From Allobosea robiniae (GTDB lineage: Bacteria; Pseudomonadota; Alphaproteobacteria; Rhizobiales; Beijerinckiaceae), in contig NZ_FNBZ01000005.1 of the NCBI RefSeq assembly GCF_900102525.1, positions 62,001 through 126,000 on the forward strand: 64,000 nt of DNA, written 5' to 3'. Of the stretch, positions 24,060 through 42,727 are shown one piece after another; the first letter of the stretch is position 1, and every line of letters begins with the position of its first letter. The notes beneath the pieces are model-generated. The model was not told the DNA's origin. It saw only the letters and a program-made list of their open reading frames with translations, and searched no databases. The translations under genes and the position numbers were made by a program.

Positions 24060-24100
24060 GCCATCAGACCAGCCAAGGGGCTCATTGAAGAGAGGGCGGA

Positions 24101-24940: not shown

Positions 24941-25010
24941 CGGCGGCGCGGATTAACGATTTCTGCGGTGACACCGGAAAGCCGGGCCCGCCTCTTGGGA
25001 GAAGCAGACC

Positions 25011-26564: not shown

Positions 26565-26576
26565 GGACGGCAAGAA

Positions 26577-26613
26577 GGGCTGCGCGGGAGCGTGCATGCT
26601 CCTGGCGCAGCCC
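26577..26613 (+). terminator. Strong hairpin after the family 5 binding-protein gene
   Basis: GGGCTGCGC pairs with GCGCAGCCC and, inside, GGAGC with GCTCC around a 6 nt loop, with one small internal bulge. The stem starts 13 bp after the stop codon and separates this unit from the MFS gene. No U-tract follows. Confidence 0.6.
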
Positions 26614-26740
26614 CGTCAGCCCATCAATCCATCTCGACCGCTCGCGGCCCTTGCCGGAAGAACGATCCGACGCCGCCGTTTTCACCCGCTCGCATCCTGA
26701 AGCGGGACGAGCGCGCGGCGACGGGATCGGGGGAACCGTC

Positions 26741-28098: not shown

Positions 28099-29046
28099 AT
28101 GTCCCGCCTCATCACCGTTGCCGCCGCACAGTTGGGTCCGATCCAGCGAGCCGACAGCCGCAAGCAGGTCATCGACCGGATGATCGCGCTGCTGGAGAAG
28201 GCCAAGGCGCAAGGCGCGACCTTCGTCGTGTTTCCCGAGCTCGCGCTGACCACCTTCTTCCCGCGCTGGTACCATGAGGATCGCGCCGAGGCGGATCAAT
28301 GGTTCGAGCGCAGCATGCCCGGCCCGGATACGCAGGCACTGTTCGACAAGGCGAAGGAGCTCGGCCTCGCCATGAGCTTCGGCTATGCCGAGCTGACGCC
28401 CGAAGGCCGGCATTTCAACAGCTCGATCCTGGTCGACCGCGGCGGCCGTATCGTCGCCAAATACCGCAAGATCCACCTGCCTGGCCATGTCGAGTTCGAC
28501 GCCGAGCGGACGCATCAGCATCTCGAGAAGCGCTATTTCGAGCCGGGCGATCTCGGCTTCCCGGTCTGGGAATTCGAAGGCGGGCTGTTCGGTATGGCGA
28601 TCTGCAACGACCGGCGCTGGCCCGAGACCTATCGCGTCATGGGGCTGCAGGGCGTCGAGATGGTCGTGCTCGGCTACAACACCCCGTCCGCCAATTCGCA
28701 ATCGCCCAACGAGACGGCAGCCGACCGGCTGTTCCACCACCGCCTGTCGGTGCAGGCCGGCGCCTACCAGAACTCGACCTGGGTCGTGGCCGTCGGCAAG
28801 GCCGGAACCGAAGACGGGCACCATCTTTTCGGGGGAACGCTGATCGCGGCGCCGGACGGCAAGATCGTCGGGGAGATCGACCATGAGGAGGACGGCGTGC
28901 TCGTCCATCCCTGCGATCTCGACGATACCCGCTTCGGCAAGGCGACGATCTTTGATTTCATCCGCCATCGCCGTGTCGAGCATTACGGCCTGATCACCGA
29001 ACGCACCGGCGTCGGCGCGCCGCTCGGAAAGCCCGAGGGCGCCTGA
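28099..29046 (+). CDS. N-carbamoyl-D-amino acid hydrolase (nitrilase superfamily)
   Basis: 315 aa, the length of Agrobacterium D-carbamoylase (about 304), with close agreement along the whole chain: FPELALTTFFPRW, KYRKIHLPGH, HLEKRYFEPGDLGFPV, AICNDRRWPE, RVMGLQGVE and a QHYGLI-like HYGLI end. The catalytic triad is Glu47, Lys124 and Cys169. It hydrolyses N-carbamoyl-D-amino acids to the D-amino acid, ammonia and CO2, the step after D-hydantoinase. The hydantoinase gene lies convergently just downstream. A LysR-type box ends 115 bp before the ATG, so expression is probably inducible together with the importer and the DUF917 operon. Confidence 0.92.
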   Translation: MSRLITVAAAQLGPIQRADSRKQVIDRMIALLEKAKAQGATFVVFPELALTTFFPRWYHEDRAEADQWFERSMPGPDTQALFDKAKELGLAMSFGYAELTPEGRHFNSSILVDRGGRIVAKYRKIHLPGHVEFDAERTHQHLEKRYFEPGDLGFPVWEFEGGLFGMAICNDRRWPETYRVMGLQGVEMVVLGYNTPSANSQSPNETAADRLFHHRLSVQAGAYQNSTWVVAVGKAGTEDGHHLFGGTLIAAPDGKIVGEIDHEEDGVLVHPCDLDDTRFGKATIFDFIRHRRVEHYGLITERTGVGAPLGKPEGA

Positions 29047-29055
29047 GCGCCCTCG
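29034..29055. terminator. Bidirectional hairpin between carbamoylase and hydantoinase genes
   Basis: CGAGGGCGC and GCGCCCTCG form a perfect 9-base stem with a CTGA loop. It covers the carbamoylase stop codon and ends 10 bp before the convergent hydantoinase stop, serving both strands. Confidence 0.6.
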
Positions 29056-29064
29056 TTGCCGGCT

Positions 29065-30507
29065 TTACCGGAACGGGTCGAACGGGGTCGGGAAGCGACC
29101 GGTCGGCGTGATCTCGGCGTAAGGCGCGCGCGCCAGCAACTGCCCTTGCCCCGGCTGCGCCAACACCCGCTCGCCATCGAAGACGAGGCAGCCGCGCTGA
29201 TAGGTCGCCGCCGGATAGCCCTGCACCGCCATGCCCTCATAAGGCGTGTAGTCGCTGCCATGATGCTGCATGGCATTGGTCAGCGTGACGCGCCGGTTGG
29301 GATCGAACAGCACGATATCGGCATCGGCCCCGACCGCGAGCGCGCCCTTGCGTGGCGCCAACCCGAAACGCCGCGCCGGATTGGTCGCGACGAGATCGAC
29401 GAAGCGGCGCAGGTCGATGCGCCCCTTGGCGACACCCTCCGAGTAGAGAATGGGCAGGCGTGCGGCGAGACCGGGCACGCCGTTCGGGATCTTGTTGAAA
29501 GGTGCGCCCTCGCCGTGCTGCTTCTTGCCGCGCGGGTCGTCGTAGCGCAGCGGCGAATGGTCGGACGAGACGATGTCGATGACGCCGTCGCGCAGGAACT
29601 GCCAGAGCGCCTCCTGGTCGGCGGTCGAGCGCAGCGCCGGCGAGATCATGAACTTGGCGCCCTCGAAGCCCGGGCGATCCATGTCGGCCTCGTCGAGCAC
29701 GAGATATTGCGTGCAGGTCTCGGCCCAGGCCTTCTGCCCGCGCTTCTGCGCCCGCTCGACCTCTTCGCCGGACTGCCGGCCCGAGACGTGGAAGACCTGG
29801 ATCGGCGTATCCAGCGCCTCGGCCAGGGCGAGAATGCGATGCGTCGCCTCGCGTTCGACCACCATGGGCTTCGCCCAGGCGAGATGGCGCGGCGCCGTCT
29901 GGCCCGCCGCCAGCAGCGCCTGCGTCAGCCAAGTGATCAGTTCGTGATGCTCGGCATGGACGCAGACGAGCGCGCCGGCGCGCCGCGCCGCGGCCAGCGT
30001 CTGCAGGATCTGCGCATCGCCGAGACGGTTGCTGTCATAGGTCATGAAGATCTTGACCGAGCGATGCCCGGCCTCGACCAGCGCCGGCAATTCGGTGTCC
30101 AGCACCTCCGGAGTGGGATCGTTGACCAGAAGATGGAAGGCATGGTCGATCCGGGCCTGCTTCGCCTTCTCGGCATAGGCGGCAACCGCGCCGGCGAGCG
30201 AGCCGCCGCGAACCTGAGGTGCATGGCAGACGACCGTGGTCGTGCCGCCCGCCGCGGCAGAGGCCGTGCCGCTATCGAAGCCGTCGGCGATGTCGGCGCC
30301 CGAGGAGAAGGGCTGGTTGAGATGGACATGACTGTCGACCCCGCCGGGCAGGACGAGCAGGCCCTTTGCATCGACCTCCTCCTTGCCACGCGGCAGCCCC
30401 GCGCCGATCGCGGCGATGACACCGCCGGCAATACCGATATCGAAAGCTCCGATGGAGGAGGCGGTGACGGCCGTGCCGCCGCGGATGACGAGATCGAAAT
30501 CGCTCAT
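29065..30507 (-). CDS. hydA: D-hydantoinase / dihydropyrimidinase
   Basis: 480 aa from the ATG at 30507 (MSDFDLVIRGG); GGAGAGAAAG just before it acts as Shine-Dalgarno, so the ATG at 30522 is not needed. Amidohydrolase metal site: His60 and His62 in VDSHVHLNQ, the carboxylated Lys152 in SVKIFMTYD, His184 in VHAEHHEL, His240 in HVSGRQ and Asp316 in SSDHSP. All are present, so the enzyme should be active. It opens 5-substituted hydantoins or dihydropyrimidines to N-carbamoyl amino acids. It stands alone on the minus strand, convergent with the D-carbamoylase gene and divergent from the NHL-repeat gene across 71 bp. A start MSDFDLVLRG is shared with the second amidohydrolase at 36838. Confidence 0.93.
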   Translation of the reverse strand: MSDFDLVIRGGTAVTASSIGAFDIGIAGGVIAAIGAGLPRGKEEVDAKGLLVLPGGVDSHVHLNQPFSSGADIADGFDSGTASAAAGGTTTVVCHAPQVRGGSLAGAVAAYAEKAKQARIDHAFHLLVNDPTPEVLDTELPALVEAGHRSVKIFMTYDSNRLGDAQILQTLAAARRAGALVCVHAEHHELITWLTQALLAAGQTAPRHLAWAKPMVVEREATHRILALAEALDTPIQVFHVSGRQSGEEVERAQKRGQKAWAETCTQYLVLDEADMDRPGFEGAKFMISPALRSTADQEALWQFLRDGVIDIVSSDHSPLRYDDPRGKKQHGEGAPFNKIPNGVPGLAARLPILYSEGVAKGRIDLRRFVDLVATNPARRFGLAPRKGALAVGADADIVLFDPNRRVTLTNAMQHHGSDYTPYEGMAVQGYPAATYQRGCLVFDGERVLAQPGQGQLLARAPYAEITPTGRFPTPFDPFR

Positions 30508-30578
30508 GGTCTTTCTCTCCATGCGACGGGGGCCGTGAAACGGCAGCCCGCAGCGCGCGAAACAGCGACGAGGTCAGG

Positions 30579-31430
30579 ATGAAAACGGAACTGCGCGTCG
30601 CGCTCGGCGACAGGCTCTATGGCATCGAGCGTCCCTGGGGCGCCCTGCCGGCGACGCCGGGGCGGATCACCGATCTCACAGTCGGCAAGGACGGGCTGGT
30701 GCATGTCCTGCTGCGCCGCGACAGCGCCGTCGATCCCGAGGGGCCCTGCGTGATCACGCTCGCGAGCGATGGCAGCTTCGTCAGGAGCTGGGGCGAAAAG
30801 CTCTGCGTCGATGCTCACAAGATCGCGGCGATGCCCAATGGCGGCCTTGCCATCGTCGACCGCGACGCCCACCGCATCTTCTTCTGCGATGATGAGGGAC
30901 GCATACGGCAGCAGATCGGCGAGAGCCATCGGCCCGGCCAGCCCTTCAACCATCCGAGCGATATCGCCTTTGCGCCCGATGGCGGCTTCTATGTCACCGA
31001 TGGCTATGGCAATGGCCGCATCCGTCGCTACGACTCCGGCGGCAGCCTGATCGCGAGCTGGGGCTCGGTCGGGACGGCGCCGGGCGCGTTCCTGACGCCG
31101 CACGGCATCTGCGTGCTCGGCGACGGTCGCGTCATCGTCGCCGATCGCGAGAACAGCCGCGTGCAGAGCTTCACGGCCGGGGGCGAACTTCTCGCGGTCT
31201 GGGATGCGTTCCTGCGCCCGCAGGATGTCGTCGCCGATGCGGATGATCGAATCTATGTCTGCGACTCGATCCCGACGCTGAGCCTGCTCTCGGCGGATGG
31301 CGCCCTGCTCGGCCGCTGCCGGCCGGTGCTCAACGGCGCCCATGGCCTGTGGCTTGGAACGGCCGGCGATATCTTCCTCGCGGAGACCAACCCCAACCGC
31401 ATCACGCGGCTTTTCCCCGTCGCGAGCTGA
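30579..31430 (+). CDS. NHL-repeat beta-propeller protein
   Basis: 283 aa, no signal peptide seen. At least five NHL-type repeats are visible with the pattern xPxDIAxxPDGxxYVTDxxNxRI: DAHKIAAMPNGGLAIVDRDA, HPSDIAFAPDGGFYVTDGYG, LTPHGICVLGDGRVIVADRE, RPQDVVADADDRIYVCDS and NGAHGLWLGTAGDIFLAET. A six-bladed propeller is likely. Related proteins include the lyase part of peptidyl-glycine alpha-amidating enzyme and sugar lactonase-like hydrolases. It lies inside the hydantoin island, between the hydantoinase and the amino acid importer, so it may act on a lactone or hydroxyglycine-type intermediate, but this is a guess. Confidence 0.78.
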   Translation: MKTELRVALGDRLYGIERPWGALPATPGRITDLTVGKDGLVHVLLRRDSAVDPEGPCVITLASDGSFVRSWGEKLCVDAHKIAAMPNGGLAIVDRDAHRIFFCDDEGRIRQQIGESHRPGQPFNHPSDIAFAPDGGFYVTDGYGNGRIRRYDSGGSLIASWGSVGTAPGAFLTPHGICVLGDGRVIVADRENSRVQSFTAGGELLAVWDAFLRPQDVVADADDRIYVCDSIPTLSLLSADGALLGRCRPVLNGAHGLWLGTAGDIFLAETNPNRITRLFPVAS

Positions 31431-31450
31431 CGCGACGGGCCACCGCGCCC

Positions 31451-32128
31451 TCATGCGGCGGAGACGGCCGTGCGGTTCTGCAGGCGCGAGACCAGCCGCA
31501 CGAAGGGCCAGAACATCAGGAAGTAGACGATCGCCACTGCGATCAATGGCGTTGGGTTGTAGAGCAGGCCCTGGGCAAGCTGGGCCGAACGCAGCAGTTC
31601 CTGAAGTGCGACGGCGGATGCGATCGAGGTCTGCTTCACCAGCTCGACCGTGTTGCTGATCAGGTCCGGCAGCACGTTGCGCGTGCCCTGCGGCACCACG
31701 ACATGGATCATGCTCTTGTACCAGCTCAAGCCCGTGGAGCGGGCCGCTTCGCGCTGGCCCTTCGGCACGGATTCGATGCCGGCGCGGAAGATCTCGGCGA
31801 AATAGCTCGAGCCGTTCAGCGTCAGCGCCAGCACGGCGGCCGTGAACTCGTTGAGCTTCAGGCCGAGGAAGGGCAGGCCGAAGAAGATGAAGATCAGCAG
31901 CACCAGCGGCGGGATGGCGCGCATCACGTCGACATAGGCGATCAGCAGGAAGCGCAGCAGCCGGTTCGGCACGTCCTGCGCCATGGCGATGGCGATACCA
32001 CTGACGACCGAAAGCGGCACGGCGACGGCGGCCAATGCCAGCGTCATCCAGAAGCCCTGCAGCAGCAGCGGCCAGACCTGCTTGAGAACGTCGATATTGA
32101 GGAACGTCGTGACGAGATCGTCCATCAT
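31451..32128 (-). CDS. Polar amino acid ABC transporter permease 2
   Basis: 225 aa. The ATG at 32128 overlaps the stop of the upstream permease (ATGA), so the much longer open frame further upstream is not used. About five membrane helices; the EAA loop is NVLPDLISNTVELVKQTSIASAVA after STGLSWYKSMIHVVVPQ (HisM/GlnP type). It forms the inner-membrane channel with the sister permease. Last gene of the four-gene importer unit (binding protein, ATPase, two permeases). Confidence 0.92.
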   Translation of the reverse strand: MMDDLVTTFLNIDVLKQVWPLLLQGFWMTLALAAVAVPLSVVSGIAIAMAQDVPNRLLRFLLIAYVDVMRAIPPLVLLIFIFFGLPFLGLKLNEFTAAVLALTLNGSSYFAEIFRAGIESVPKGQREAARSTGLSWYKSMIHVVVPQGTRNVLPDLISNTVELVKQTSIASAVALQELLRSAQLAQGLLYNPTPLIAVAIVYFLMFWPFVRLVSRLQNRTAVSAA

Positions 32129-32799
32129 GACCTCGGATGCGCATAGGCGCGTTCGAGCCAGCGCGTGAAGCGCACGAAGGGCAGGAACAGCACGAGGAAG
32201 AGCAAGGCGCCGACGGTCAGCGCGGTCGGGTTGGCGACGTTGGACTGGATGCTGGAGGTCACGTTGAGCAGTTCCGGCACGGCCACGACCGAGCCCAGCG
32301 TGGTGCCCTTGCTGATGCCGATGGCGCGGTTGGTCAGAGGCGGGATCGAGATGCGCACCACCTGTGGCAGGATGATGTAGGCAAGCGTCTTGCTGAAGCT
32401 GAGGCCGGTCGAGCGCCCAGCTTCCCATTGTCCCTTGTGCACGGCGTTGATGCCGGCCCAGAAGATCTCCTCGGCGAAGGCCGAGAGCACGATCGCCAGC
32501 GCCAGCACCGTCGCGGTGATGGGCTCCAGCACCAGCCCGAAATAGGGCAGCGCGAAATAGGCCAGCACGATCAGGACGAGCTGCGGGATCGAGCGGAAGA
32601 AATCGATGTAGAAGATGATCAGCCAGTTCAGCGGCCGGATGCCGTAGAGCCTGAGGATCGCCAATGCGAGGCCGAGCGGGATGCCGATCAGAACCGTCAG
32701 GATCGACATCTGGACGGTGATCAGGAAGCCGCGCAGGATGTCCGGCCAATAGGCCGACATCAGCGAAAAATCGAAGAAATAACGGACGATCTGGTCCAT
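32125..32799 (-). CDS. Polar amino acid ABC transporter permease 1
   Basis: 224 aa, His/Glu/Gln/Arg/opine permease type with about five helices (for example LITVQMSILTVLIGIPLGLALA at 24-45). The EAA-like loop carries STGLSFSKTLAYIILPQVVR and ALTNRAIGISKGTTL-type residues in the order typical of HisQ/M proteins. The gene starts 6 bp after the ATPase stop and ends inside the next permease start. With its partner it should form a heterodimeric channel for an amino acid or amino-acid-like ring compound. Confidence 0.92.
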   Translation of the reverse strand: MDQIVRYFFDFSLMSAYWPDILRGFLITVQMSILTVLIGIPLGLALAILRLYGIRPLNWLIIFYIDFFRSIPQLVLIVLAYFALPYFGLVLEPITATVLALAIVLSAFAEEIFWAGINAVHKGQWEAGRSTGLSFSKTLAYIILPQVVRISIPPLTNRAIGISKGTTLGSVVAVPELLNVTSSIQSNVANPTALTVGALLFLVLFLPFVRFTRWLERAYAHPRS

Positions 32800-32805
32800 G
32801 CGCCG

Positions 32806-33555
32806 TCAGCCGTGCGAGCGCATCACGAAGTCGCGGATGCGCTGGTGCTGCGGATTGATCAGGATCTCCTGCGGCGTGCCCTCGGCCAGAATCGCGCCAT
32901 GATCCATGAAGACGACGCGGTCGGCGACATCGCGCGCGAACTTCATCTCATGGGTCACGACGATCATGGTCATGCCCATTTCCTTGGTCCGGACCATGAC
33001 GTTGAGGACTTCGCCGACGAGCTCGGGGTCGAGCGCCGAGGTCGGCTCGTCGAAGAGCATGACCTGCGGCTCCAATGCCATGGCGCGAGCGATGCCGACG
33101 CGCTGCTGCTGGCCGCCGGACAGCTCGGCCGGATAGGCGTCGGCCTTGTGGGCAAGGCCGACGACTTCGAGATGGTGGCGGGCCTTCGCCTCGGCCTCCT
33201 GCTTGCTCAAGCCGACGACCTTGCGCAGCGCGAGCGAGACGTTCCCCAGCGCCGTCTTGTGCGGGTAGAGATGGATACCCTGGAAGACCATGCCGATGCC
33301 GCGGCGCAGGCGGTCGAGATCGACCTTGGGGCCGGTGACCTCCTGCCCGCCGAGGCGGATCGTGCCCGCCGTCGGCTCCTCAAGCCGGTTGATGCAGCGC
33401 AGGCAGGTGCTCTTGCCCGAACCGGAGGAGCCGACGATCACGACGGCCTCGCCCTTGCCGACCTTGAGGTCGACACCGCGCAGAACCTCGACATTGCCGA
33501 AGCTCTTGCGCAAGCCCTCGATCGAAACGATCGTTTCGGAAGGCGTGGCCGTCAT
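32806..33555 (-). CDS. Polar amino acid ABC transporter ATP-binding protein
   Basis: 249 aa from the ATG at 33555; a GTG at 33573 that overlaps the binding-protein stop (GTGA) would add six residues and is equally possible. Walker [11 protein letters not shown]-loop [12 protein letters not shown], signature [16 protein letters not shown], Walker [15 protein letters not shown] and switch His in VTHEM. The GIHLYPHKT form is characteristic of the GlnQ/HisP family (usually QxFNLFPHxT). It powers the importer encoded by the adjacent permease genes. Confidence 0.94.
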
Positions 33556-33569
33556 GGCGGGCGCTGAGG

Positions 33570-34445
33570 TCACTTGCAGGCGGCCTTGTGCGGGGTCGCG
33601 TCGTAACCCTCGAAATCCGGCGCGCCGATGCCCGGATAAACCTTGGCGCTGGAGGAATCGGCCGCCGGCTTCACGCCGAACCACTTCTCATGGATCGCGG
33701 CCAGCGTGCCGTCGCTCTTGATGCATTCCAGCGCGGCCTCGACCTTGGCGCGGAACGCCGCATCCTCCTTGCGGAAAGCGATGCCGAAATTGTTGCCGCT
33801 GTTGAGCACGAATGCGACCTCGGCCATCGGCGTCTGCGTCGAGACATAGCGCGAGACCGGGACGTCGGCGACATTGGCGAAGGCGCGCCCGATCATCACG
33901 GCCTGCACGGCGTCGGCGTTCTTGTTGTAGCGCTGGATGGTGTAGCCGTATTTGGCTTCGTTGTCGGTCAGCCACTTGTCGGAGATCGAGCCGTTATTGA
34001 CGGTCAGCGCCTTGCCCTTCAGCTCCTCCAGATTGGCGATCTTGGCGCCCTTCTTGACGAGGAAGCCGAGACCCGTCGGCATATAGGGCTCGCTGAACAG
34101 CATCTGCGCGGCGCGGTCTTTCGTGATGTTGGTCGGCGCCGGGATCATCTCGTAGCGCTTGGAGAACAGGCCCGCGAAAATCGCCGAGAAATTGGAATCC
34201 GTGACCTCGACGCCGGGGCGCCCGAGCTGCTTCGCCAGTGCAGCCGACATGTCGTAGGTGAAGCCCGTCGCCTCGCCGGCCGGCGTCTTGAAGCAGAACG
34301 GCGCGAAGCCGAGATCGCAGGCCACCTTCAGCTTCTCGCCCTGCGGATGGTCGGCATCCTGCGCCAGGGCCGGCATGGCGAGCATGGCGCCGAGCACGGC
34401 GCCCGCTGCAAAGGCACGCGTCAGCTTGATCGAATTCAGCTTCAT
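33570..34445 (-). CDS. Amino acid ABC transporter substrate-binding protein (family 3)
   Basis: 291 aa. The signal peptide is residues 1-28 ([18 protein letters not shown]), with cleavage before QDADH; periplasmic. The family 3 core shows [51 protein letters not shown] and [20 protein letters not shown]. First gene of the importer unit; GGGAAAG precedes the ATG. A LysR-type two-part element lies 112-148 bp upstream. Close linkage with two hydantoinase-type genes, a racemase and carbamoylases suggests uptake of a hydantoin, carbamoyl-amino acid or amino acid. Confidence 0.92.
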
Positions 34446-34556
34446 CTTTCCCGCTCCCGTTATGCGTTGTGGCTACGCCGCGATTGCTGCCCCCTGTCCC
34501 TGCAACAATCCGGCCATGTCCAAGGGGAGCCTAACAGGGCGAAATCATGCCCAGCC

Positions 34557-34593
34557 AATCATTTATTGTCGGGTGGCCATAACCTGATGTTAA
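34557..34593 (-). promoter_or_regulatory. Two-part LysR-type element upstream of the amino acid importer
   Basis: Read on the minus strand: TTAAC-ATCAG-GTTAT (34593-34579), then CAATAAATGATT (34568-34557), with AATAAA beginning 26 bp from the box start. The box differs from the copy at 27970-27984 by one base. It overlaps the last codons of the lysR gene, so the importer promoter lies partly inside lysR. Confidence 0.62.
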
Positions 34594-35516
34594 GTTCCAA
34601 CCTCGCCGTCCTCGCCGGAGGCAGCGGGAGGCGACGGTACCAGGCCGCGCAGAATATCGACGAAAGCACTCGCCGTGCGTGACAGCGGCTCGAAGCGCGG
34701 CGTCAGCAGATGGGCGCGGACGCGCGTCTTGGGTGCGAGCGGGCGCGATACCAGTTCCGGCCAGGTCCGCCCACGCAGCACGAACTCGTCGACGACCCCG
34801 ACGCCCGCCCCCGCACGCACCATCGCGCAGGCAACCGGCGTGAAACGGACGACGGTGCTGATCCTGAGCGGCGCGGATTTCAATGTGAGGGCACGCCCGA
34901 CGACATCGCCATAGGGCGTCTGCGGCCCGAACCCGATCAGCGGATAAGGCGCGAGATCGGCCGGGCGGACCACGCGCAATCGCGCCAGCGCATGGTCGCG
35001 CGGCATGATCACCATCAGCCGCCCTTCCGTCAGGATCTCCGTATTGAGCGTCGGCTCGTCGACCGGGATGATCGAGACGCCGAGATCGGCACGGCCGGCC
35101 ACGACCTTGGCGACGACCTCCAGCAGGGTCAGCACCTCGAACTCGACGCGCAGGTCCGGGAAGCGCTCGCGCAGCCGCGCGATGGCATCCGGCACCAGCG
35201 CCTGGCCGACGCTCGGGCTCGCGACGATCCGCACCGACCCGGTACCGCGCTCGCGCAATTCATCGGCGAGCTCGTTGACCCTGACCACGCCCTGATGGAC
35301 CTGATCGACCTCCTGGAACAGGCGGCGCGCCTCGGGCGTCGGCTGGACACGGCCGCGCACGCGCTCGAACAGGCGCAGCGCCAATCGGTCCTCGGTATAG
35401 GCCAGCAGGCGGCTGATCGCCGGCTGCGAGACCGAGAGCAGGCGGGCCGCGCCGCTGATCGATCCGGTGATCATGATGGCCCGGAAGACTTCGATCTGCC
35501 GAAGATTGAGGCGCAT
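34590..35516 (-). CDS. LysR family transcriptional regulator
   Basis: 308 aa. The N-terminal winged helix-turn-helix is typical: LNLRQIEVFRAIMITGS, then SGAARLLSVSQPAISRLLAY (about residues 18-37). The effector domain starts around residue 90 with GSVRIVASPSVGQALVPDAI, and contains PLIGFGPQTPYGDVV and a late RAGAGVGVVDEFV. It sits between the amino acid importer (same strand, downstream) and the DUF917 operon (divergent). A box matching its presumed site begins 5 bp upstream of its own ATG and is shared with the DUF917 promoter, so it probably represses itself while activating the operon on a pathway intermediate. Confidence 0.93.
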   Translation of the reverse strand: MRLNLRQIEVFRAIMITGSISGAARLLSVSQPAISRLLAYTEDRLALRLFERVRGRVQPTPEARRLFQEVDQVHQGVVRVNELADELRERGTGSVRIVASPSVGQALVPDAIARLRERFPDLRVEFEVLTLLEVVAKVVAGRADLGVSIIPVDEPTLNTEILTEGRLMVIMPRDHALARLRVVRPADLAPYPLIGFGPQTPYGDVVGRALTLKSAPLRISTVVRFTPVACAMVRAGAGVGVVDEFVLRGRTWPELVSRPLAPKTRVRAHLLTPRFEPLSRTASAFVDILRGLVPSPPAASGEDGEVGT

Positions 35517-35520
35517 GGCA

Positions 35521-35558
35521 ATAACATCCGTTTATGGTCGGCCGCATAATAAGCATGA
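35521..35558 (+). promoter_or_regulatory. Two-part LysR-type element between lysR and DUF917 gene
   Basis: ATAAC-ATCCG-TTTAT (35521-35535) matches the 27970 box at 12 of 15 bases. AATAAGCATGA begins at 35548, and its GCATGA starts exactly 32 bp from the box start, as at 27970. It lies 5 bp before the lysR ATG and 134-171 bp before the DUF917 ATG. Confidence 0.58.
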
Positions 35559-35624
35559 TTCATTTCGCGCCTAGCGTTCTAAGCTCGACCTCGTGCCGGC
35601 AACGACCGGCTCGCCGAGCATGGC

Positions 35625-35651
35625 GCGAAAAAGTGGGAACCGGTTTTTCGC
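35625..35651. repeat. Rhizobiales-type intergenic palindrome
   Basis: GCGAAAAA and TTTTTCGC are perfect 8-base arms around GTGGGAACCGG. I recall the pattern GCGAAAA-GTGG-ACCGG-TTTTCGC as a common intergenic palindrome in Rhizobiales genomes. Here it lies in the leader of the DUF917 operon, 40 bp before the ATG. Confidence 0.6.
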
Positions 35652-35691
35652 TTCAGCAATGCTCCCAACCAAAGCAGGGTGAGGCCGGCCG

Positions 35692-36789
35692 ATGAGACGC
35701 TTTCTGACGAGCAGGGATGTCGAGGCCGCCGTGGCCGGCGGCTCCGTCTTCGCAGCGGGCGGCGGCGGCTGGGCCGATCACGGACGCATGCTCGGCACCG
35801 CCGCGGTCAACACCGGCAGGCCCGAGCTCGTCACGATGGACGAGATTCCCGACGACGCGATCATCGCCACCGCCGCCGCCATCGGCGCGCCCGGCGGCAC
35901 GACCGAGTGGGAGATGTGGGGCATCGACTACGTCAAGGCCGTGCAATTGCTGCAGGAGGCGCTGGGCAAGCCGATCTACGGCCTGATCATCGGCCAGAAC
36001 GGCATGTCGAGCACGCTGAACGCCTGGCTCCCGAGCGCGATCCTCGGCATCAAGGTGGTCGATGCCGTCGGCGATATCCGCGCCCATCCCACCGGCGACA
36101 TGGGCTCGATCGGTCTTGCCAACAGCCCGGAAGCGACGATCCAGGTCGCGGTCGGCGGCAATCGTTCGAAGAACCAGTATATCGAGCTGGTGACGCGCGG
36201 CGCCACCGCCAAGGTCTCGCCGATCCTGCGCACGGCCTCGGACATGTCGGGCGGCTTCATCGCCTCCTGCCGCAATCCCGTTTCGGCGGCCTATGTCCGG
36301 AAGAACGCGGCGCTCGGCGGCATCTCGATGGCGCTGGCCTTGGGCGAGCGCATTCTCGCCGCCAAGCCGAAGGGCGGCAGCGCGGTCATCGACGCGATCT
36401 GCGACGAGACCGGCGGCTCGATCATCGCGCGCGGGACCGTGGCGAAGAAGGATGTGCGCTACACCAACGAGGCCTTCGACATCGGCACGATCCAGGTCGG
36501 GACCGGCGCCGCCGCCCGCGTCATCCATGTCATGAACGAATACATGGCCGTGACCGATCCCGACGGCGCCCGGCATGCCTGCTTCCCGGACGTGATCACC
36601 ACGCTCGACGCCGACGGCCAACCGGTCAGCTCCGGCCATGTCCGCGAGGGCATGGAACTCTCGGTGCTGCGCGTGCCCAAGGACAAGATCCCGCTGAGCT
36701 CCAGCGTGACCGACCCCAGCGTCTATCCGATCGTCGAGAAGGCGCTCGGCATGAATTTCACCGACTACGCGCTCGGCCGCGCGGACTAG
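35692..36789 (+). CDS. DUF917 family protein (S-methyl-thiohydantoin desulfurase-like)
   Basis: 365 aa, cytoplasmic. It matches the DUF917 layout: a Gly-rich opening AAVAGGSVFAAGGGGWADHG, PELVTMDEIPDDAIIATAAAIGAPG, the central VVDAVGDIRAHPTGDMGSIGL and a C-terminal AFDIGTIQVGTGAAARVIHVMNEYM strand block. The family (Pfam DUF917) often neighbours hydantoinase HyuA/HyuB genes. From memory the domain has been renamed after an S-methyl-thiohydantoin desulfurase; please verify. First gene of a five-gene run with a second hydantoinase-like protein, a carbamoylase, a flavin reductase and a racemase. Predicted role: an early step on a hydantoin or thiohydantoin ring. Confidence 0.82.
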   Translation: MRRFLTSRDVEAAVAGGSVFAAGGGGWADHGRMLGTAAVNTGRPELVTMDEIPDDAIIATAAAIGAPGGTTEWEMWGIDYVKAVQLLQEALGKPIYGLIIGQNGMSSTLNAWLPSAILGIKVVDAVGDIRAHPTGDMGSIGLANSPEATIQVAVGGNRSKNQYIELVTRGATAKVSPILRTASDMSGGFIASCRNPVSAAYVRKNAALGGISMALALGERILAAKPKGGSAVIDAICDETGGSIIARGTVAKKDVRYTNEAFDIGTIQVGTGAAARVIHVMNEYMAVTDPDGARHACFPDVITTLDADGQPVSSGHVREGMELSVLRVPKDKIPLSSSVTDPSVYPIVEKALGMNFTDYALGRAD

Positions 36790-36837
36790 TCCGCACGGCT
36801 CTCCGTCCACCCCTCAGGATCAACCGGATACCCGACC

Positions 36838-38187
36838 ATGAGCGATTTCGATCTCGTCCTCCGCGGCAATATCGTGCTGTCCGACCGGATCATCGAGGAC
36901 GGCTATGTCGCCGTCAGCGGCGGCAAGATCGGCAAGGTCGGCTCGGGCACGCCGCCCTCGGCCCGCGAGACCCAGGATTTCCGCGGCCAGTGGATCATTC
37001 CCGGCGTCATCGATGGACAGGTCCATTCCGGCAGCCAGGCTAATCACGAGGGCATCGGCATGTGCTCGCGGGCGGCGGCGGCCGGCGGCGTCACCGTGAT
37101 GGTCGACATGCCCTATGACGAGCCGGAGCCCGTCACCAGCGCAAAACTCTTCAACGAGAAGGTCGCGGTGGTCGAGCGCGACGCCCATGTCGATGTCGCC
37201 CTCTACGCCACGATCACCATCGAGAACGGGCTCCATGCCATTCCCGGGCTGGTCGAGGCCGGCGCCTGCGCCTTCAAGTTCTCGACCTTCGAGGCCAATC
37301 CGACGCGCTTTCCCCGCATCGGCGACGACACGCTCTACGAGGCCTTCAAGCTGATCGAGCCGACCGGGCTGCTCTGCGGCGTCCATAACCAGGACCAGGA
37401 GATGACAAGGCGCAATATCGCCCGGCTGATCGAGGCTGGCGATACCGGCCCGGACGCCTTCCTGCGCGCCCATCCCCCGCTCGTCGAGAACCTCGCCACC
37501 GCCCGGATCTACGAGATCGGCGCCGAGACCGGGGCGCGTGCGCACGCCGTCCACGTCTCGACCTCGCGCGGCTTCGAGATCTGCAACATGTACAAGCAGG
37601 CCGGGTACAAGGCGACGGTCGAGAGCTGCGTGCAGTATTTCATGCTCAATGCCGAGGAGCACGGCCCGCGCTTCGGTGCCAAGATCAAACATTACCCGCC
37701 GATCCGCCCGAAGGCCGAGAGCGACCTGCTCTGGAGCCATCTCGCCGCCGGCCATTGCGACTTCATCTCGTCGGATCACGTCTCCTGGGGGCTGGAGAAG
37801 AAGGGCGACCCGATGATCTTCAAGAACACCTCGGGCGGGCCCGGCATCGAAACCCTGCTGCCGGCGCTCTGGACCGGCTGCGAGGAGCACGGCCTGTCGC
37901 CGACCATCGTGGTGAAGCAGCTCTGCGAGGGGCCGGCCAAGGCCTTCCTGCTCGCCGACAAGGGCCGGCTCGAAGCCGGCGCCGATGCCGATATCACCGT
38001 GCTGGAGCCCGGCCGCTTCATCCACGACCCCAGCAAGAGCCTCGCGGCGGTGAAGTGGAGCTCGATGGAGGGTCGCGAATTCCGCGTCCGCGTCGCTGCG
38101 ACCTATGTCCGCGGCCAGCTCGCCTGGGACGGCAAGGAGATCCGCAACAAGGCCGGCGACGGCCGCTTCCTGCGCCCGGCGGCGTGA
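36838..38187 (+). CDS. Hydantoinase/dihydroorotase-like amidohydrolase with altered metal site
   Basis: 449 aa, cyclic amidohydrolase family (hydantoinase, allantoinase, dihydroorotase). The usual DxHxH metal motif reads VIDGQVHSGSQ, so the first His is Gln61 and only His63 remains. The other ligands are present: Lys147 in ACAFKFSTF, His183 in GVHNQDQ, His239 in HAVHVSTSRG and Asp313 in ISSDHVSWG. A one-metal or otherwise altered centre is likely. The gene follows DUF917 by 48 bp and precedes the M20-type carbamoylase by 5 bp. It may open the ring produced by the DUF917 enzyme. Clearly a paralogue, not a copy, of the hydantoinase at 29065. Confidence 0.87.
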   Translation: MSDFDLVLRGNIVLSDRIIEDGYVAVSGGKIGKVGSGTPPSARETQDFRGQWIIPGVIDGQVHSGSQANHEGIGMCSRAAAAGGVTVMVDMPYDEPEPVTSAKLFNEKVAVVERDAHVDVALYATITIENGLHAIPGLVEAGACAFKFSTFEANPTRFPRIGDDTLYEAFKLIEPTGLLCGVHNQDQEMTRRNIARLIEAGDTGPDAFLRAHPPLVENLATARIYEIGAETGARAHAVHVSTSRGFEICNMYKQAGYKATVESCVQYFMLNAEEHGPRFGAKIKHYPPIRPKAESDLLWSHLAAGHCDFISSDHVSWGLEKKGDPMIFKNTSGGPGIETLLPALWTGCEEHGLSPTIVVKQLCEGPAKAFLLADKGRLEAGADADITVLEPGRFIHDPSKSLAAVKWSSMEGREFRVRVAATYVRGQLAWDGKEIRNKAGDGRFLRPAA

Positions 38188-38192
38188 TCACC

Positions 38193-39437
38193 ATGTCGAT
38201 CGATCAGGACCGGCTCTGGCGCCGTATCGAGGCGCTCTCGGGGATCACCGACCCGGAGCGCCCGTGGACGCGCCGCTCCTTCACCCCGCGCTTCCTCGAA
38301 GGGCGGGAATGGTTGACGGCAGCATTCCGCGAAGCCGGGCTGGAGACGGAACTCGATGCCGCCGGCAATCTGATCGGCCGGCTCGCGGGCGCCGATCCGA
38401 GCCTGAAGCCGATCCTGATCGGCTCGCATTCCGACACGGTGCCCTCGGGCGGGCGCTATGACGGTATTCTGGGCGTGCTCGCCGCGCTTGAGGTCGCGCA
38501 GAGCTTCAGCGAGCGCGGCGACCGCCTGCGCCATACGCTGGAGGTCGTCGACTTCCTCGCCGAGGAGCCGAGCGAGTTCGGCCTCTCCTGCATCGGCAGC
38601 CGCGCGCTCGCCGGAACGCTGAGCGAAGAGCATCTGGCAATGACCCGCCCCGACGGCATGACGCTGCGCGAGGGCATCGCTTTCGTCGGCGGGCGGCCGG
38701 CGGAGCTGGCCTCGGTCAGGCGGCCGGCAGACGGCATCGCGGCCTATGTCGAGGTCCATATCGAGCAGGGCCGCGTGCTGGAGAACGAGCGCATCCCGAT
38801 CGGCATCGTCACCGATATCGTCGGGATCCGCCGCGAGCGCATCATCGTCACCGGCCGGGCCGACCATGCCGGCGCGACGCCGATGCCGCTGCGGGCCGAT
38901 GCATTGGTCGGCGCCGCCAAGCTGATCGAGGCCGCCTACAAGCGCGCGCTTTCGACTGCGCGCGACAACCAGCCGCTCGTTGCCACCTTCGGGCGCATCG
39001 AGGTCAGCCCCAACGCGTCGAACGCCGTGCCGGGCGAGGCCATGATGACGCTCGAAGTCCGCTCCGGCAACGAAGCCGCGGTCAAGGCCTTCGGCGAGGC
39101 GCTGGTACGCGATCTGCGCCCTGCCTTGGAGGAACTGCGCCTCACCATCGCCGTCGAGCCGATCAGCCATGTCGCGCCGACGGCCTGTGCTCGGCAAGTC
39201 CGCTCCGCCATCGCCAATGCCTCGGCTTCGCTCGGGCTCGCCACGCGCGACCTGCCGAGCGGCGCCGGCCATGACGGCGTCCATATCGCCCATATCGGCC
39301 CGGTCGGGATGATCTTCGTGCCCTGTCTCGAGGGGCGCAGCCATGCGCCGGAGGAATCCATCACGCCGGACCAGGCCGGCGACGGCGCCCGCGTGCTCGC
39401 CGAAACGGTGCGCCTGCTCGATGCGCAGCTAGGCTGA
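38193..39437 (+). CDS. M20-family amidase (N-carbamoyl-L-amino acid hydrolase / allantoate amidohydrolase type)
   Basis: 414 aa from the ATG at 38193 (MSIDQDRLWRRIEAL); the open frame upstream overlaps the amidohydrolase gene. Metal and catalytic segments: IGSHSDTVPSGGRYDG (His79 and Asp90), FLAEEPSEFG (Glu124/Glu125; family form EEGSRF), YVEVHIEQGRVLE, the dimer-domain GRADHAGATPM, and the late SGAGHDGVHIAH and SHAPEESI. This is the hydantoinase/carbamoylase subgroup of M20 peptidases. It removes the carbamoyl group, in family members with L-stereospecificity, so the island encodes carbamoylases of two unrelated folds. The next gene starts 4 bp after the stop. Confidence 0.92.
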   Translation: MSIDQDRLWRRIEALSGITDPERPWTRRSFTPRFLEGREWLTAAFREAGLETELDAAGNLIGRLAGADPSLKPILIGSHSDTVPSGGRYDGILGVLAALEVAQSFSERGDRLRHTLEVVDFLAEEPSEFGLSCIGSRALAGTLSEEHLAMTRPDGMTLREGIAFVGGRPAELASVRRPADGIAAYVEVHIEQGRVLENERIPIGIVTDIVGIRRERIIVTGRADHAGATPMPLRADALVGAAKLIEAAYKRALSTARDNQPLVATFGRIEVSPNASNAVPGEAMMTLEVRSGNEAAVKAFGEALVRDLRPALEELRLTIAVEPISHVAPTACARQVRSAIANASASLGLATRDLPSGAGHDGVHIAHIGPVGMIFVPCLEGRSHAPEESITPDQAGDGARVLAETVRLLDAQLG

Positions 39438-39441
39438 GGCG

Positions 39442-40104
39442 ATGGATTGGGCCGCGAGCGACCTCAAGGAACGCGATCTCTACAAGCTCCTCGTCAACAC
39501 GGTGCTGCCGCGCCCGATCGCACTCGTCACCACGGTCGACGCGGAGGGACGCGCCAATTCCGCGCCCTTCAGCTTCTTCAACGTCTTCAGCCATGCCCCG
39601 CCGCTGGTGGTGCTCGGCATCGAGGGCCGCAGCGGCACCGAGCCGCTGAAGGACACGATGCGCAATATCCGCGAGACCGGCAGCTTCGTCGTCAATCTCG
39701 TCGACCGGGCGATGGTTGCAGCCATGCAGGTCTGCGCCATCGACTTCCCCTCCGAGATCGACGAGATCGCAGCGGCCGGGCTCGACACTGTGGCGAGCGC
39801 CAAGGTCGCGGCGCCGCGGCTTGCCGCCTCGCCTGTCCAGCTCGAATGCCGCGAGACGGTCTCGCTCTCGTTCGGCGCCAAGCATCGTAATCTCGTCGTC
39901 GGCGAGATCGTCCATCTTCATATCCGCGACGGCATCGTCGACGAGCGGCTGCATATCGATATCGACAAGCTCGATCTCGTTGGTCGGCTGCATGGCGCCG
40001 ACTGGTATCTTGGCCTGGGCGATCGTTTCCAAGAACCGCGCCAGACGCTGGACGGCTGGCGCGAGCGGGGCCGACCCACCATTCCCGAAGGAGAGACCTC
40101 GTGA
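39442..40104 (+). CDS. Flavin reductase family protein
   Basis: 220 aa, FMN-binding split barrel. Typical residues: LLVNTVLPRPIALVTTVDAEGRANSAPFSFFNVFSHAPPLVVLG in pieces (positions about 12-55, with PRPIALVTT and NSAPFSFFN as key motifs), then the DTMRNIRETGSFVVNLV block and the HLHIRDGIVDERLHID end. Members reduce flavin for a partner monooxygenase or bind FMN themselves. No two-component oxygenase lies in the window. Its place between carbamoylase and racemase genes (4 bp gap, then a GTGA overlap) makes it part of the island operon. Confidence 0.9.
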   Translation: MDWAASDLKERDLYKLLVNTVLPRPIALVTTVDAEGRANSAPFSFFNVFSHAPPLVVLGIEGRSGTEPLKDTMRNIRETGSFVVNLVDRAMVAAMQVCAIDFPSEIDEIAAAGLDTVASAKVAAPRLAASPVQLECRETVSLSFGAKHRNLVVGEIVHLHIRDGIVDERLHIDIDKLDLVGRLHGADWYLGLGDRFQEPRQTLDGWRERGRPTIPEGETS

Positions 40105-40784
40105 GCGGCACGATCTACGTCATCAACCCGAACTCGACCGAGCGGGTGACACGGGGCATCGATGAGGCCGTCGCGCCGCTGCGCATGGCCGGCGGGCCGG
40201 CGATCGAATGCCTGACGCTGGCCGACGGCCCGCCCGGCATCCAGTCGCAGCGCGATGTCGACGGGCTGATCCCGGCCTTGCTGAAACGCGCCGCCGCGCT
40301 GGAGACCGAAGCCGCCGCCTTCGTCGTCGCCTGCTTCTCCGATCCCGGCATGCACTCGCTGCGCGAGCAGAGCACGAAGCCGGTGCTCGGCATCGCCGAA
40401 TGCGGCGTGCTGACGGCGCTTACTCTCGGCCAGCGCTTCGGCATCATCGCGATGCTGGAGAATTCGATCCCGCGTCATCTGCGCTATCTTGGCGCCATGG
40501 GCATGATGGACCGTTTCGCCGGCGACCTGCCTGTGAACCTCACCATCCAGGAAATGGCCGACGAGCGGATCACGCTGGAACGCATGATCGGCGTCGGCCG
40601 GGCCTTGCGCGATACGCACCATGCCGATGTGCTGGTGATGGGCTGCGCCGGCATGGCGCGCTTCCGCGAGCCGCTCGAGCGCGAGCTCGGCGTGCCGGTC
40701 GTCGAGCCGACGCAGGCCGCGGTGACGATGGCGGTCGGGCGCGTCCGGCTAGGCTGGGGCGGGCGCCCCCTCACCCGAGGCTGA
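40101..40784 (+). CDS. Aspartate/glutamate racemase superfamily protein (hydantoin racemase-like)
   Basis: 227 aa from a GTG that overlaps the preceding TGA (GTGA). It opens with IYVINPNSTERVTRGID, the hydantoin-racemase/maleate-isomerase style start. The two catalytic cysteines are present in VVACFSDPGM (about residue 77) and VMGCAGMARF (about residue 178), as expected for a two-base racemase. Predicted to interconvert the D and L forms of a 5-substituted hydantoin or related acid, so that both stereospecific hydrolases can finish the material. Last gene of the tight DUF917 run; 228 bp follow before the next gene, with only a 24-codon frame of no clear meaning at 40788. Confidence 0.9.
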   Translation: MSGTIYVINPNSTERVTRGIDEAVAPLRMAGGPAIECLTLADGPPGIQSQRDVDGLIPALLKRAAALETEAAAFVVACFSDPGMHSLREQSTKPVLGIAECGVLTALTLGQRFGIIAMLENSIPRHLRYLGAMGMMDRFAGDLPVNLTIQEMADERITLERMIGVGRALRDTHHADVLVMGCAGMARFREPLERELGVPVVEPTQAAVTMAVGRVRLGWGGRPLTRG

Positions 40785-41012
40785 AGCATGGACAGCTTTC
40801 CCGACCGGCATCCCGGCAAGATCGCGTGCATCATCCCGCTGCCAGCTTATCGCTTATAGGACTGAAGAGCATTTGCAATAAGAGCCTCCCGCGAACGCCG
40901 TGAGGCATGAGATCGCGCGAACAGGCACGGACGCACCCGCTCCGGCCAGGCTCGCGGGGCGTTTCAATCCAGGCAGGCTCCTGCCTCTTTCCACCAGCAA
41001 CTGAGGACCATC

Positions 41013-41942
41013 ATGGCACTGCTCGATGAAACCGCAGATGGCGTCTACGTCATCGCGGTGACCCCGTTCACCGAAACCGGCGCACTCGATCTCGACAGCA
41101 CCGACCGCATGGTCGATTTCTACCTGGAGAAGGGCGCGACCGGGCTCACCGTGCTGGGCATGATGGGCGAAGCGCCGAAGCTGACGGCGGAAGAATCCCG
41201 CATCTTCGTGCGTCGCGTGCTGAAGCGAGTCGACGGCCGCGTGCCGGTCGTCGCCGGCGTCTCCGCTTCCGGCTTCGCCGCGATGGCCGAGCTCAGCGAG
41301 AGCGTGATGGGCGACGGCGCTGCGGGCGTCATGGTCGCGCCGCCGTCCAATCTGCGCACCGACGACCAGATCGTCTCCTACTATGCCATGGTCGCGGAGA
41401 CGCTGGGGCCGAAGATGCCTTTCGTGCTGCAGGATTTCCCGCTGGTGACGCAGGTGCAGATCACGCCGGCTGTCATCCTGAAGATCGTCGCCGCCCACCC
41501 GTCCTGCGTCATGCTCAAGCATGAGGATTGGCCGGGCCTCGCCAAGATCTCGGCCCTGCGCGCGGCCAGTGACAAGGGCGGCAGGCGCATCTCGATCCTC
41601 GTCGGCAATGGCGGCATGTTCCTGCCGGAGGAACTGTCGCGCGGTGCCGACGGCGCCATGACCGGCTTCGCCTATCCCGAGATGATGGTCGATGTCTGGA
41701 AGGCGCATGCCGCCGGCCAGGTCGAGCGGGCACATGACCTGTTCGACGCCTATCTGCCGCTGGCGCGCTACGAGCAGCAGCCCGGCCTCGGCCTCGCCAT
41801 CCGCAAATATACACTGGCGAAGCGCGGCGCGATCGCCGCGGCCACACTGCGCAAGCCAGGCGGGGCATTGTCGAAGGTGGATATCGCCGATATCGAACGG
41901 CTCGTCGCGCGGCAGGAGCGCCGCCTCAAGGAGATCGGCTGA
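41013..41942 (+). CDS. Dihydrodipicolinate synthase family protein
   Basis: 309 aa TIM-barrel aldolase/lyase of the DapA/NanA group. Opening [20 protein letters not shown], then [20 protein letters not shown] (family GxxGE motif; Met replaces the usual Thr-Thr pair), [11 protein letters not shown], and the Schiff-base lysine in [12 protein letters not shown]. Because the TTGE threonines are replaced and the gene lies in a catabolic island, a real DapA role is unlikely. A pyruvate-forming aldolase or hydratase-aldolase is more plausible. It is coupled to the following SDR gene through a TGATG overlap. Confidence 0.9.
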
Positions 41943-42727
41943 TGGATCTGGGACTTCTCGGAAAGCGCGCCCTGGTATTGGGCGCCAGCCGCGGGCTCGG
42001 CGCGGTGATCGCGCAGACGCTCGCCGCTGAAGGCGCGACGGTGATCGCCGCGGCGCGCAGCAGCGATGCGACGGAGAGCTGGATCGCCGGCCTGCCGGCC
42101 GATCAGCGCGGCCGCGCCAGCGCCGCGAAGCTCGACCTCACCGATCTCTTTTCGGTCGACGCCCTCGCTGAAAAACTGATCGCTGAAGGCGGCGTCGATA
42201 TCCTGATCGGCAATTCCGGCGGCCCGCCGCCCGGCGAGGCGCGAGACGCCAAGCGCGAGGACTGGCTGAAGCATTTCGAGGGCATGGCGGCCAACCTGTT
42301 CCATCTGGTGCAGCGCCTCCTGCCCGGCATGACGGAGCGCGGCTTCGGCCGCATCGTCACGATCGCTTCCTCCGGCGTCGAGCAGCCGATTCCGCGGCTT
42401 GCTCTCTCCAACGGCATCCGCGCCGCCGTGATCGGCTGGTCGAAGACGTTGGCCTCGGAGGTCGCGGGCAGCGGGGTCACGGTCAATGTCGTGCTTCCCG
42501 GCCGCATCCATACCGAGCGCGTCGACCAGCTCGACGATGCTGCCGCAGCCCGCAGCGGCGGCACCCGCGATGCGATCGCCAAAGCATCGATCGCGACGAT
42601 TCCCGCCGGGCGCTACGGCAAGCCGCAGGAATTCGCCGATGTCGTCACCTTCCTCGCCAGCGAACGCGCGAGCTATGTGACGGGCGCGAAAATCCGCATC
42701 GACGGCGGTTTGATCAGAAGTGTCTGA
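41942..42727 (+). CDS. SDR family oxidoreductase
   Basis: 261 aa, classical short-chain dehydrogenase fold. Cofactor loop [19 protein letters not shown] (about residues 11-29), then [14 protein letters not shown] in the place of the NNAG motif and [26 protein letters not shown], in which the usual catalytic Tyr of YxxxK is not obvious: the position reads [12 protein letters not shown]-terminal [22 protein letters not shown] is standard. The start overlaps the DapA-like gene's stop (TGATG), so both are co-expressed. The missing Tyr suggests an atypical or non-redox SDR, similar to the 3-oxoacyl-ACP reductase-like group with GNSGGP motifs. Confidence 0.88.

What the first reader, a model, noticed from the sequence alone, without database searches (positions are those of the whole stretch)
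28099..40784. Possible thiohydantoin or unusual hydantoin degradation island
Two hydantoinase-type enzymes, two carbamoylases of unrelated folds (nitrilase type and M20 type), a hydantoin-racemase-like protein, DUF917, flavin reductase, NHL propeller protein and a dedicated amino acid importer are encoded together. Classical D-hydantoin clusters lack DUF917 and the second amidohydrolase. From memory DUF917 has been linked to S-methyl-thiohydantoin desulfuration in ergothioneine breakdown, yet the ergothionase and urocanase-like genes of that route are absent here. A different sulfur- or amine-substituted hydantoin may be the substrate.
Basis: partly seen in the sequence, partly recalled or inferred. 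Interest (0 to 1): 0.78.

Follow-up and report, generated by a model that had tools for sequence, protein, structure and literature searches.

The report
Tail-only thiohydantoin breakdown operon, Bosea
This bacterium carries the last three enzymes of a known route for breaking down the antioxidant ergothioneine, plus a hydantoin racemase and an importer, but not the enzyme that makes their sulfur-containing starting compound, so it probably feeds on that compound when others make it.

Summary
The island is real. The DUF917 protein is a thiohydantoin desulfurase (NF058529, 597.8 bits, cut-off 440), not the S-methyl type (280.8, cut-off 450). The second amidohydrolase and the M20 carbamoylase pass the curated cut-offs for ErtD and ErtE. 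So the core is the known tail of ergothioneine utilisation, in one tight operon with a flavin-reductase-like protein and a hydantoin racemase, beside an amino-acid-type ABC importer; D-hydantoinase and D-carbamoylase accompany it in 12 and 13 of 16 loci.

The step before is missing: thiourocanate hydratase is over cut-off in 0 of 67 genomes of the genus, while 17 of 67 carry the desulfurase. Elsewhere the hydratase lies in 21 of 22 desulfurase loci. Bosea keeps 116 of 120 positions invariant in those 22; an S-methyl-like control keeps 70. Median omega is 0.05-0.18. Best reading: uptake of (thio)hydantoin-5-propionate made elsewhere, giving sulfide and glutamate. A different substrate is not excluded, but conservation speaks against it. 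Ergothionase is clearly absent only in some of these genomes; the own genome has one unlinked candidate lyase. New variant of a known kind.

The parts
28099..29046 (+). N-carbamoyl-D-amino acid hydrolase (nitrilase fold)
   Evidence: PF00795; best solved relatives are N-carbamoyl-D-amino acid hydrolases, 6lei E 3.8e-115, 1erz 6.7e-105; in 13 of 16 loci
29065..30522 (-). D-hydantoinase / dihydropyrimidinase
   Evidence: TIGR02033 486.4 bits, cut-off 393.25; 1nfg E 1.8e-112; in 12 of 16 loci
30579..31430 (+). NHL-repeat protein, role unknown
   Evidence: PF01436 E 8e-29; in 15 of 16 loci
31451..32128 (-). polar-amino-acid-type ABC permease B
   Evidence: translation; TIGR01726 92.6 bits, cut-off 42.2; 16 of 16 loci
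32125..32799 (-). polar-amino-acid-type ABC permease A
   Evidence: ORF; family by similarity of arrangement; 16 of 16 loci
32806..33684 (-). ABC ATPase of the importer (ORF; true start probably further in)
   Evidence: best NCBIfam GlnQ 301.3 bits, below its cut-off 379; 16 of 16 loci
33570..34445 (-). periplasmic binding protein, SBP_bac_3, with C-terminal tail YPGIGxPxxxGYD
   Evidence: PF00497 E 1.2e-30; tail shared with the binding protein beside desulfurase and hydratase in L033
34590..35516 (-). LysR-type regulator, divergent from the operon
   Evidence: 44-47% identical to the LysR beside the desulfurase in 10 betaproteobacterial loci
35692..36789 (+). thiohydantoin desulfurase (DUF917)
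   Evidence: NF058529 597.8 bits, cut-off 440; model pLDDT 90 with the fold of 2o3i
36838..38187 (+). ErtD, hydantoin-5-propionate amidohydrolase
   Evidence: NF058538 673 bits, cut-off 600
38193..39437 (+). ErtE, N-carbamoyl-L-glutamate amidohydrolase (M20)
   Evidence: NF058540 595.9 bits, cut-off 520; start
39442..40104 (+). flavin-reductase-like protein, role open
   Evidence: PF01613 E 9.9e-27; 4z85 2-nitrobenzoate nitroreductase E 2.5e-36; 16 of 16 loci
40101..40784 (+). hydantoin racemase (overlaps the preceding gene by 4 bases)
   Evidence: PF01177 E 1.4e-56; 3qvj putative hydantoin racemase E 2.1e-20, both Cys-containing motifs aligned; 16 of 16 loci
41013..41942 (+). DapA-family protein, conserved flank, link to the operon unproven
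   Evidence: 14 of 16 loci
41942..42727 (+). short-chain dehydrogenase, conserved flank, link unproven
   Evidence: 13 of 16 loci

Best explanation
A tail-only thiohydantoin scavenging module. An ABC importer takes up 2-thiohydantoin-5-propionate and/or hydantoin-5-propionate made by other organisms or by chemistry (inferred). The desulfurase replaces the ring sulfur by oxygen and releases sulfide; ErtD opens the hydantoin ring to N-carbamoyl-L-glutamate; ErtE releases L-glutamate, CO2 and ammonia (all three inferred from family membership). The racemase rescues the wrong-handed hydantoin, and the linked D-hydantoinase and D-carbamoylase, present in most relatives, give an optional D-branch (inferred). 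Shown here: gene content and order, family membership, absence of thiourocanate hydratase from the genus, conservation, purifying selection.
For: Three core enzymes over curated equivalog cut-offs. Desulfurase in 17 of 67 genomes of the genus; thiourocanate hydratase over cut-off in 0 of 67. In 4 of the 17 (G018, G049, G063, G080) the ergothionase query finds one histidase-family gene, the one beside hutU (in G063 only 19 of 26 first-look candidates were scored, in the other three all). EgtD (ergothioneine synthesis) in 0 of those 17, so no internal source by that route. Conservation 116/120, 47/49, 75/77 against 70/120 for an S-methyl-like control. Median omega 0.05-0.18 over 14 genes. Bosea desulfurases form one clade (95/89), with hydratase-linked homologues on both sides of it in a tree rooted on one very long branch, so loss of the hydratase link is the simpler reading. 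Hydratase-linked clusters L062, L074, L075 carry another ABC system, read by eye as the OpuC (betaine) type; Bosea has an amino-acid type. A truncation one step earlier is seen in three Pandoraea genomes: hydratase present, only MIO-type histidases.
Against: No transport or enzyme assay. The binding protein keeps the Arg and Asp that amino-acid binders of its fold use for carboxylate and alpha-amino group (alignment; roles recalled), which suits a true alpha-amino acid better than a hydantoin; its L033 relative lacks that Asp. Two desulfurase-bearing genomes hold an unlinked histidase-family lyase without the MIO motif: the own genome (C18) and G078 (L079, 35% over 87% of the query), so ergothionase-like activity is not ruled out there; histidase paralogues of 11 further genomes were not examined. 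HutU could in principle accept thiourocanate. The flavin-reductase-like protein, present in 16 of 16 loci, has no role in this scheme.
Confidence: 0.58

Rival explanations
1. The operon is the back half of a complete but scattered ergothioneine pathway: an unlinked MIO-less lyase acts as ergothionase and HutU doubles as thiourocanate hydratase.
For: MIO-less histidase-family proteins, unlinked, in the own genome (C18:581448-582872, 28-31% identical to the Achromobacter candidate ergothionase) and in G078. HutU scores 682.8 bits on the hydratase model.
Against: Own HutU scores 963 bits on hutU and is below the 930 cut-off of the hydratase; 67 of 67 genomes have such a sub-cut-off match, with or without the desulfurase. 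Four desulfurase-bearing genomes show no histidase-family gene besides the one beside hutU (candidate list of G063 not scored in full). Neighbours of the C18 lyase look like CoA-ester catabolism (read by eye).
Confidence: 0.14
2. The operon degrades another 5-substituted 2-thiohydantoin, or an amino acid turned into one, with the flavin-reductase-like protein in the entry step.
For: Flavin-reductase-like protein and racemase are in 16 of 16 Bosea loci and matched in none of the 22 non-Bosea loci. Binding protein keeps the amino-acid pair. Fixed differences: one in the desulfurase (A220R), one in ErtD, two in ErtE.
Against: 116/120, 47/49 and 75/77 invariant positions kept; three enzymes over equivalog cut-offs.
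Confidence: 0.18
3. An ordinary hydantoin or dihydropyrimidine utilisation cluster in which the desulfurase has little to do.
For: D-hydantoinase, D-carbamoylase and racemase form the classical trio.
Against: D-hydantoinase is missing from 4 of 16 loci and D-carbamoylase from 3 of 16, desulfurase-ErtD-ErtE from none; desulfurase omega 0.08.
Confidence: 0.1

Closest known systems
Ergothioneine utilisation (Ert) pathway: ergothionase, thiourocanate hydratase, thiohydantoin desulfurase, ErtD, ErtE (NCBIfam NF058530, NF058529, NF058538, NF058540; the five-step order is recalled)
   Same: Last three enzymes, over cut-off; a LysR regulator 44-47% identical beside the desulfurase
   Different: No thiourocanate hydratase in the genus, no linked ergothionase; other importer class than L062, L074, L075; added racemase, flavin-reductase-like protein and D-branch
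S-methyl-thiohydantoin desulfurase (NF058532)
   Same: Same Pfam families PF06032 and PF20906
   Different: 280.8 bits against cut-off 450; an S-methyl-like homologue keeps only 70 of 120 invariant positions
Classical D-hydantoin cluster (D-hydantoinase, D-carbamoylase, racemase)
   Same: The three enzyme families are present
   Different: Across the genus the D-hydantoinase and D-carbamoylase come and go; the Ert tail and racemase are the constant part

Membership tests
Ergothioneine utilisation (Ert) pathway | thiohydantoin desulfurase | tested here: met
   NF058529 597.8 bits, cut-off 440
Ergothioneine utilisation (Ert) pathway | ErtD hydantoin-5-propionate amidohydrolase | tested here: met
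   NF058538 673 bits, cut-off 600
Ergothioneine utilisation (Ert) pathway | ErtE N-carbamoyl-L-glutamate amidohydrolase | tested here: met
   NF058540 595.9 bits, cut-off 520
Ergothioneine utilisation (Ert) pathway | thiourocanate hydratase | tested here: not met
   NF058530 over cut-off in 0 of 67 genomes of the genus; own genome 683.6 bits against 930, and that gene is HutU
Ergothioneine utilisation (Ert) pathway | ergothionase (MIO-less histidase-family lyase) | tested here: inconclusive
   None in 16 of 16 loci; single hut-linked histidase in 4 of 17 genomes; own genome and G078 have a distant MIO-less paralogue. No NCBIfam ergothionase model turned up with the Achromobacter candidate, so the label rests on linkage and recall
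S-methyl-thiohydantoin desulfurase | score over the NF058532 cut-off | tested here: not met
   280.8 against 450 bits
Classical D-hydantoin cluster | D-hydantoinase, D-carbamoylase and racemase together | tested here: met
   the racemase by family only
Ergothioneine utilisation or D-hydantoin cluster | substrate and product shown by assay | not testable with these tools
   needs enzymes and metabolites

The most novel reading that the evidence does not exclude
Ergothioneine breakdown is split along a food chain: full degraders (for example Achromobacter, Bordetella trematum), thiourocanate users that lack ergothionase (Pandoraea), and, as the last tier, thiohydantoin users such as these Bosea that lack the hydratase as well, with importer class and an added racemase adapted to the tier.
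Probability: 0.33. Interest if true: 0.65.

Novelty: new variant of a known kind. Interest (0 to 1): 0.5.

Why it matters
If right, intermediates of ergothioneine breakdown, not only ergothioneine, are free nutrients in soil, and there are gene markers for each tier. Cross-feeding of thiourocanate between gut bacteria is reported (passages of PMC13405746, citing Zhou et al. 2025, which I could not open); a thiohydantoin-only tier would extend this. It also warns that desulfurase-ErtD-ErtE alone should not be annotated as ergothioneine use.

Tried and rejected
Rejected: an in-frame TGA in three desulfurases (G043, G047, G076) as something special; it is the normal terminal stop. Rejected: S-methyl-thiohydantoin as substrate. 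Rejected: endogenous ergothioneine as source, EgtD in 0 of 17 desulfurase-bearing genomes. Rejected: a decaying relic, median omega 0.05-0.18 in 14 genes (12 of the 16 loci were given, 9-11 comparisons per gene). The one omega of 0.985 (D-hydantoinase) I put down to loci that lack that gene, where the script took a 30-31% paralogue.

Dropped or doubled rows: G004, a 27% match over residues 52-196, was left out of the 17. G021, whose cluster is split over small contigs, is in the 17 but not in the 16-locus table. L019/L059, L021/L060 and L022/L061 are the same genomes, and by coordinates L018/G048, L020/G018 and L037/G078 too. L059-L061 were removed for the tree and the 16-locus table, but not for the invariance count (19 Bosea rows from 16 genomes; 18 for ErtE). 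L077 was left out of the 22 non-Bosea homologues and used as control; its S-methyl type is inferred from similarity, not from NF058532. G468 (L033) has a hydratase and desulfurase and one distant MIO-less lyase, so I put it in no tier.

Full report
Observation. The closest named relative of the window's desulfurase is in Bosea sp. 67-29 (99%), and genomes matching named Bosea records count as the same genus as the window's. The genes 35692-40784 lie on one strand with 48, 5 and 4 bases between them and one overlap of 4 bases, which suggests one transcript (coordinates).

What the parts are. NCBIfam places the DUF917 protein over the cut-off of thiohydantoin desulfurase (597.8 against 440 bits) and under that of the S-methyl enzyme (280.8 against 450). 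The second amidohydrolase is ErtD (673 against 600) and the M20 protein ErtE (595.9 against 520). The other amidohydrolase is a D-hydantoinase (486.4 against 393.25; 1nfg), the nitrilase-fold protein an N-carbamoyl-D-amino acid hydrolase, and the racemase is closest to solved hydantoin and allantoin racemases. The flavin-reductase-like protein is closest to 2-nitrobenzoate nitroreductase and nitrilotriacetate monooxygenase component B; its role is open.

Is the pathway complete? The own genome has one urocanase-family gene, and it is HutU (963.1 bits on hutU; 682.8 on the thiourocanate hydratase model with cut-off 930). Over the genus the hydratase model is over cut-off in 0 of 67 genomes, while 17 of 67 carry the desulfurase (18 in the tally, one of them a 27% partial match that I left out). 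For ergothionase I used the histidase-family protein of Achromobacter marplatensis that lies in one locus with desulfurase and hydratase; the label is inferred from that linkage and from its missing MIO triad, a trait of ergothionase that I recall. With it, G018, G049, G063 and G080 give one match each, beside hutU (for G063 19 of 26 candidates were scored). The own genome gives the hut histidase and one MIO-less protein at C18; G078 also holds an MIO-less one (L079). So the hydratase is absent from the genus, but an ergothionase is excluded only for part of these genomes; paralogues of 11 others were not examined. EgtD is over cut-off in 1 of 67 genomes, which is not among the 17.

Comparison with other loci. 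Of 16 unfragmented Bosea loci, 16 hold the four importer genes, desulfurase, ErtD, ErtE, flavin-reductase-like protein and racemase; 14 a LysR at 60% identity or more; 15 the NHL protein; 13 the D-carbamoylase; 12 the D-hydantoinase; 0 a hydratase or a histidase-family gene (E up to 1e-15, 40% of the query; stretches of 17-26 kb, some cut by contig ends). In the desulfurase tree the Bosea proteins form one clade (95/89), sister with weaker support (88/79) to hydratase-linked proteobacterial proteins, with hydratase-linked Paenibacillus outside. The root sits on one very long branch, so loss of the link in the Bosea line is the simplest reading, not a proof.

Same substrate or another? Of positions invariant in the non-Bosea homologues, Bosea keeps 116 of 120 in the desulfurase (22 homologues), 47 of 49 in ErtD (19) and 75 of 77 in ErtE (17). 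The S-methyl-like homologue L077 keeps 70 of the 120. This favours the same substrate, 2-thiohydantoin-5-propionate, but conservation is no assay. Median omega against the window gene is 0.08 for the desulfurase, 0.05 ErtD, 0.10 ErtE, 0.18 flavin-reductase-like, 0.17 racemase, as for working genes.

Importer. The binding protein shares 36% identity and a C-terminal tail (YPGIGxPxxxGYD) with the one beside desulfurase and hydratase in L033, which ties this importer type to the pathway. Clusters L062, L074 and L075, which also hold an MIO-less lyase, have another ABC system, read by eye as the OpuC betaine type. Against the reading, the Bosea binding protein keeps the Arg and Asp of amino-acid binders (roles recalled).

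Wider pattern. Three Pandoraea genomes (G472, G473, and the MAG G479) have hydratase and desulfurase but only MIO-type histidases. Two Methylobacteriaceae MAGs and one Eremiobacterota MAG have the hydratase and no histidase-family match, at unknown completeness. Nine genomes, the query's own included, hold a candidate ergothionase of 41% identity or more, and four alphaproteobacterial ones a more distant MIO-less lyase near the cluster. This fits a tiered use of ergothioneine intermediates; thiourocanate cross-feeding in the gut is reported (passages of PMC13405746).

Verdict. A real, conserved variant carried by 17 of 67 genomes of the genus: the tail of ergothioneine utilisation without the hydratase that feeds it, with a racemase and an optional D-branch. 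The chemistry is known; the stand-alone arrangement and its likely ecology are the new part.

Noticed in passing
   Followed up: partly
L006:8916-10457 (own genome, C18:581448-582872): Unlinked MIO-less histidase-family lyase beside genes that look by eye like GntR regulators, aldehyde dehydrogenase, two enoyl-CoA hydratases and a CoA-transferase; perhaps a lyase for another amino-acid betaine.
   Followed up: partly
L079:4770-6158 (G078, a desulfurase-bearing Bosea): MIO-less histidase-family lyase (35% to the Achromobacter candidate ergothionase) next to an ABC transporter ATPase.
   Followed up: no
   Followed up: no
window 40784-41013: In 11 of 16 loci a GlcD-type FAD oxidoreductase gene lies between racemase and DapA; the window lacks it.
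   Followed up: partly
window 43025-64000: Third-position GC of the called genes drops from about 0.85 to about 0.65 right of the island.
   Followed up: no
window 22734-27952: Omega-aminotransferase (AptA, 705 bits, cut-off 500), hydrolase, peptide-type binding protein and MFS gene precede the island; among the 16 loci as fetched only G059 shares the first three.
   Followed up: no
L027:8 onward: A second, distant desulfurase homologue (37%) lies about 8 kb from the main one in a Methylobacteriaceae MAG.
   Followed up: no
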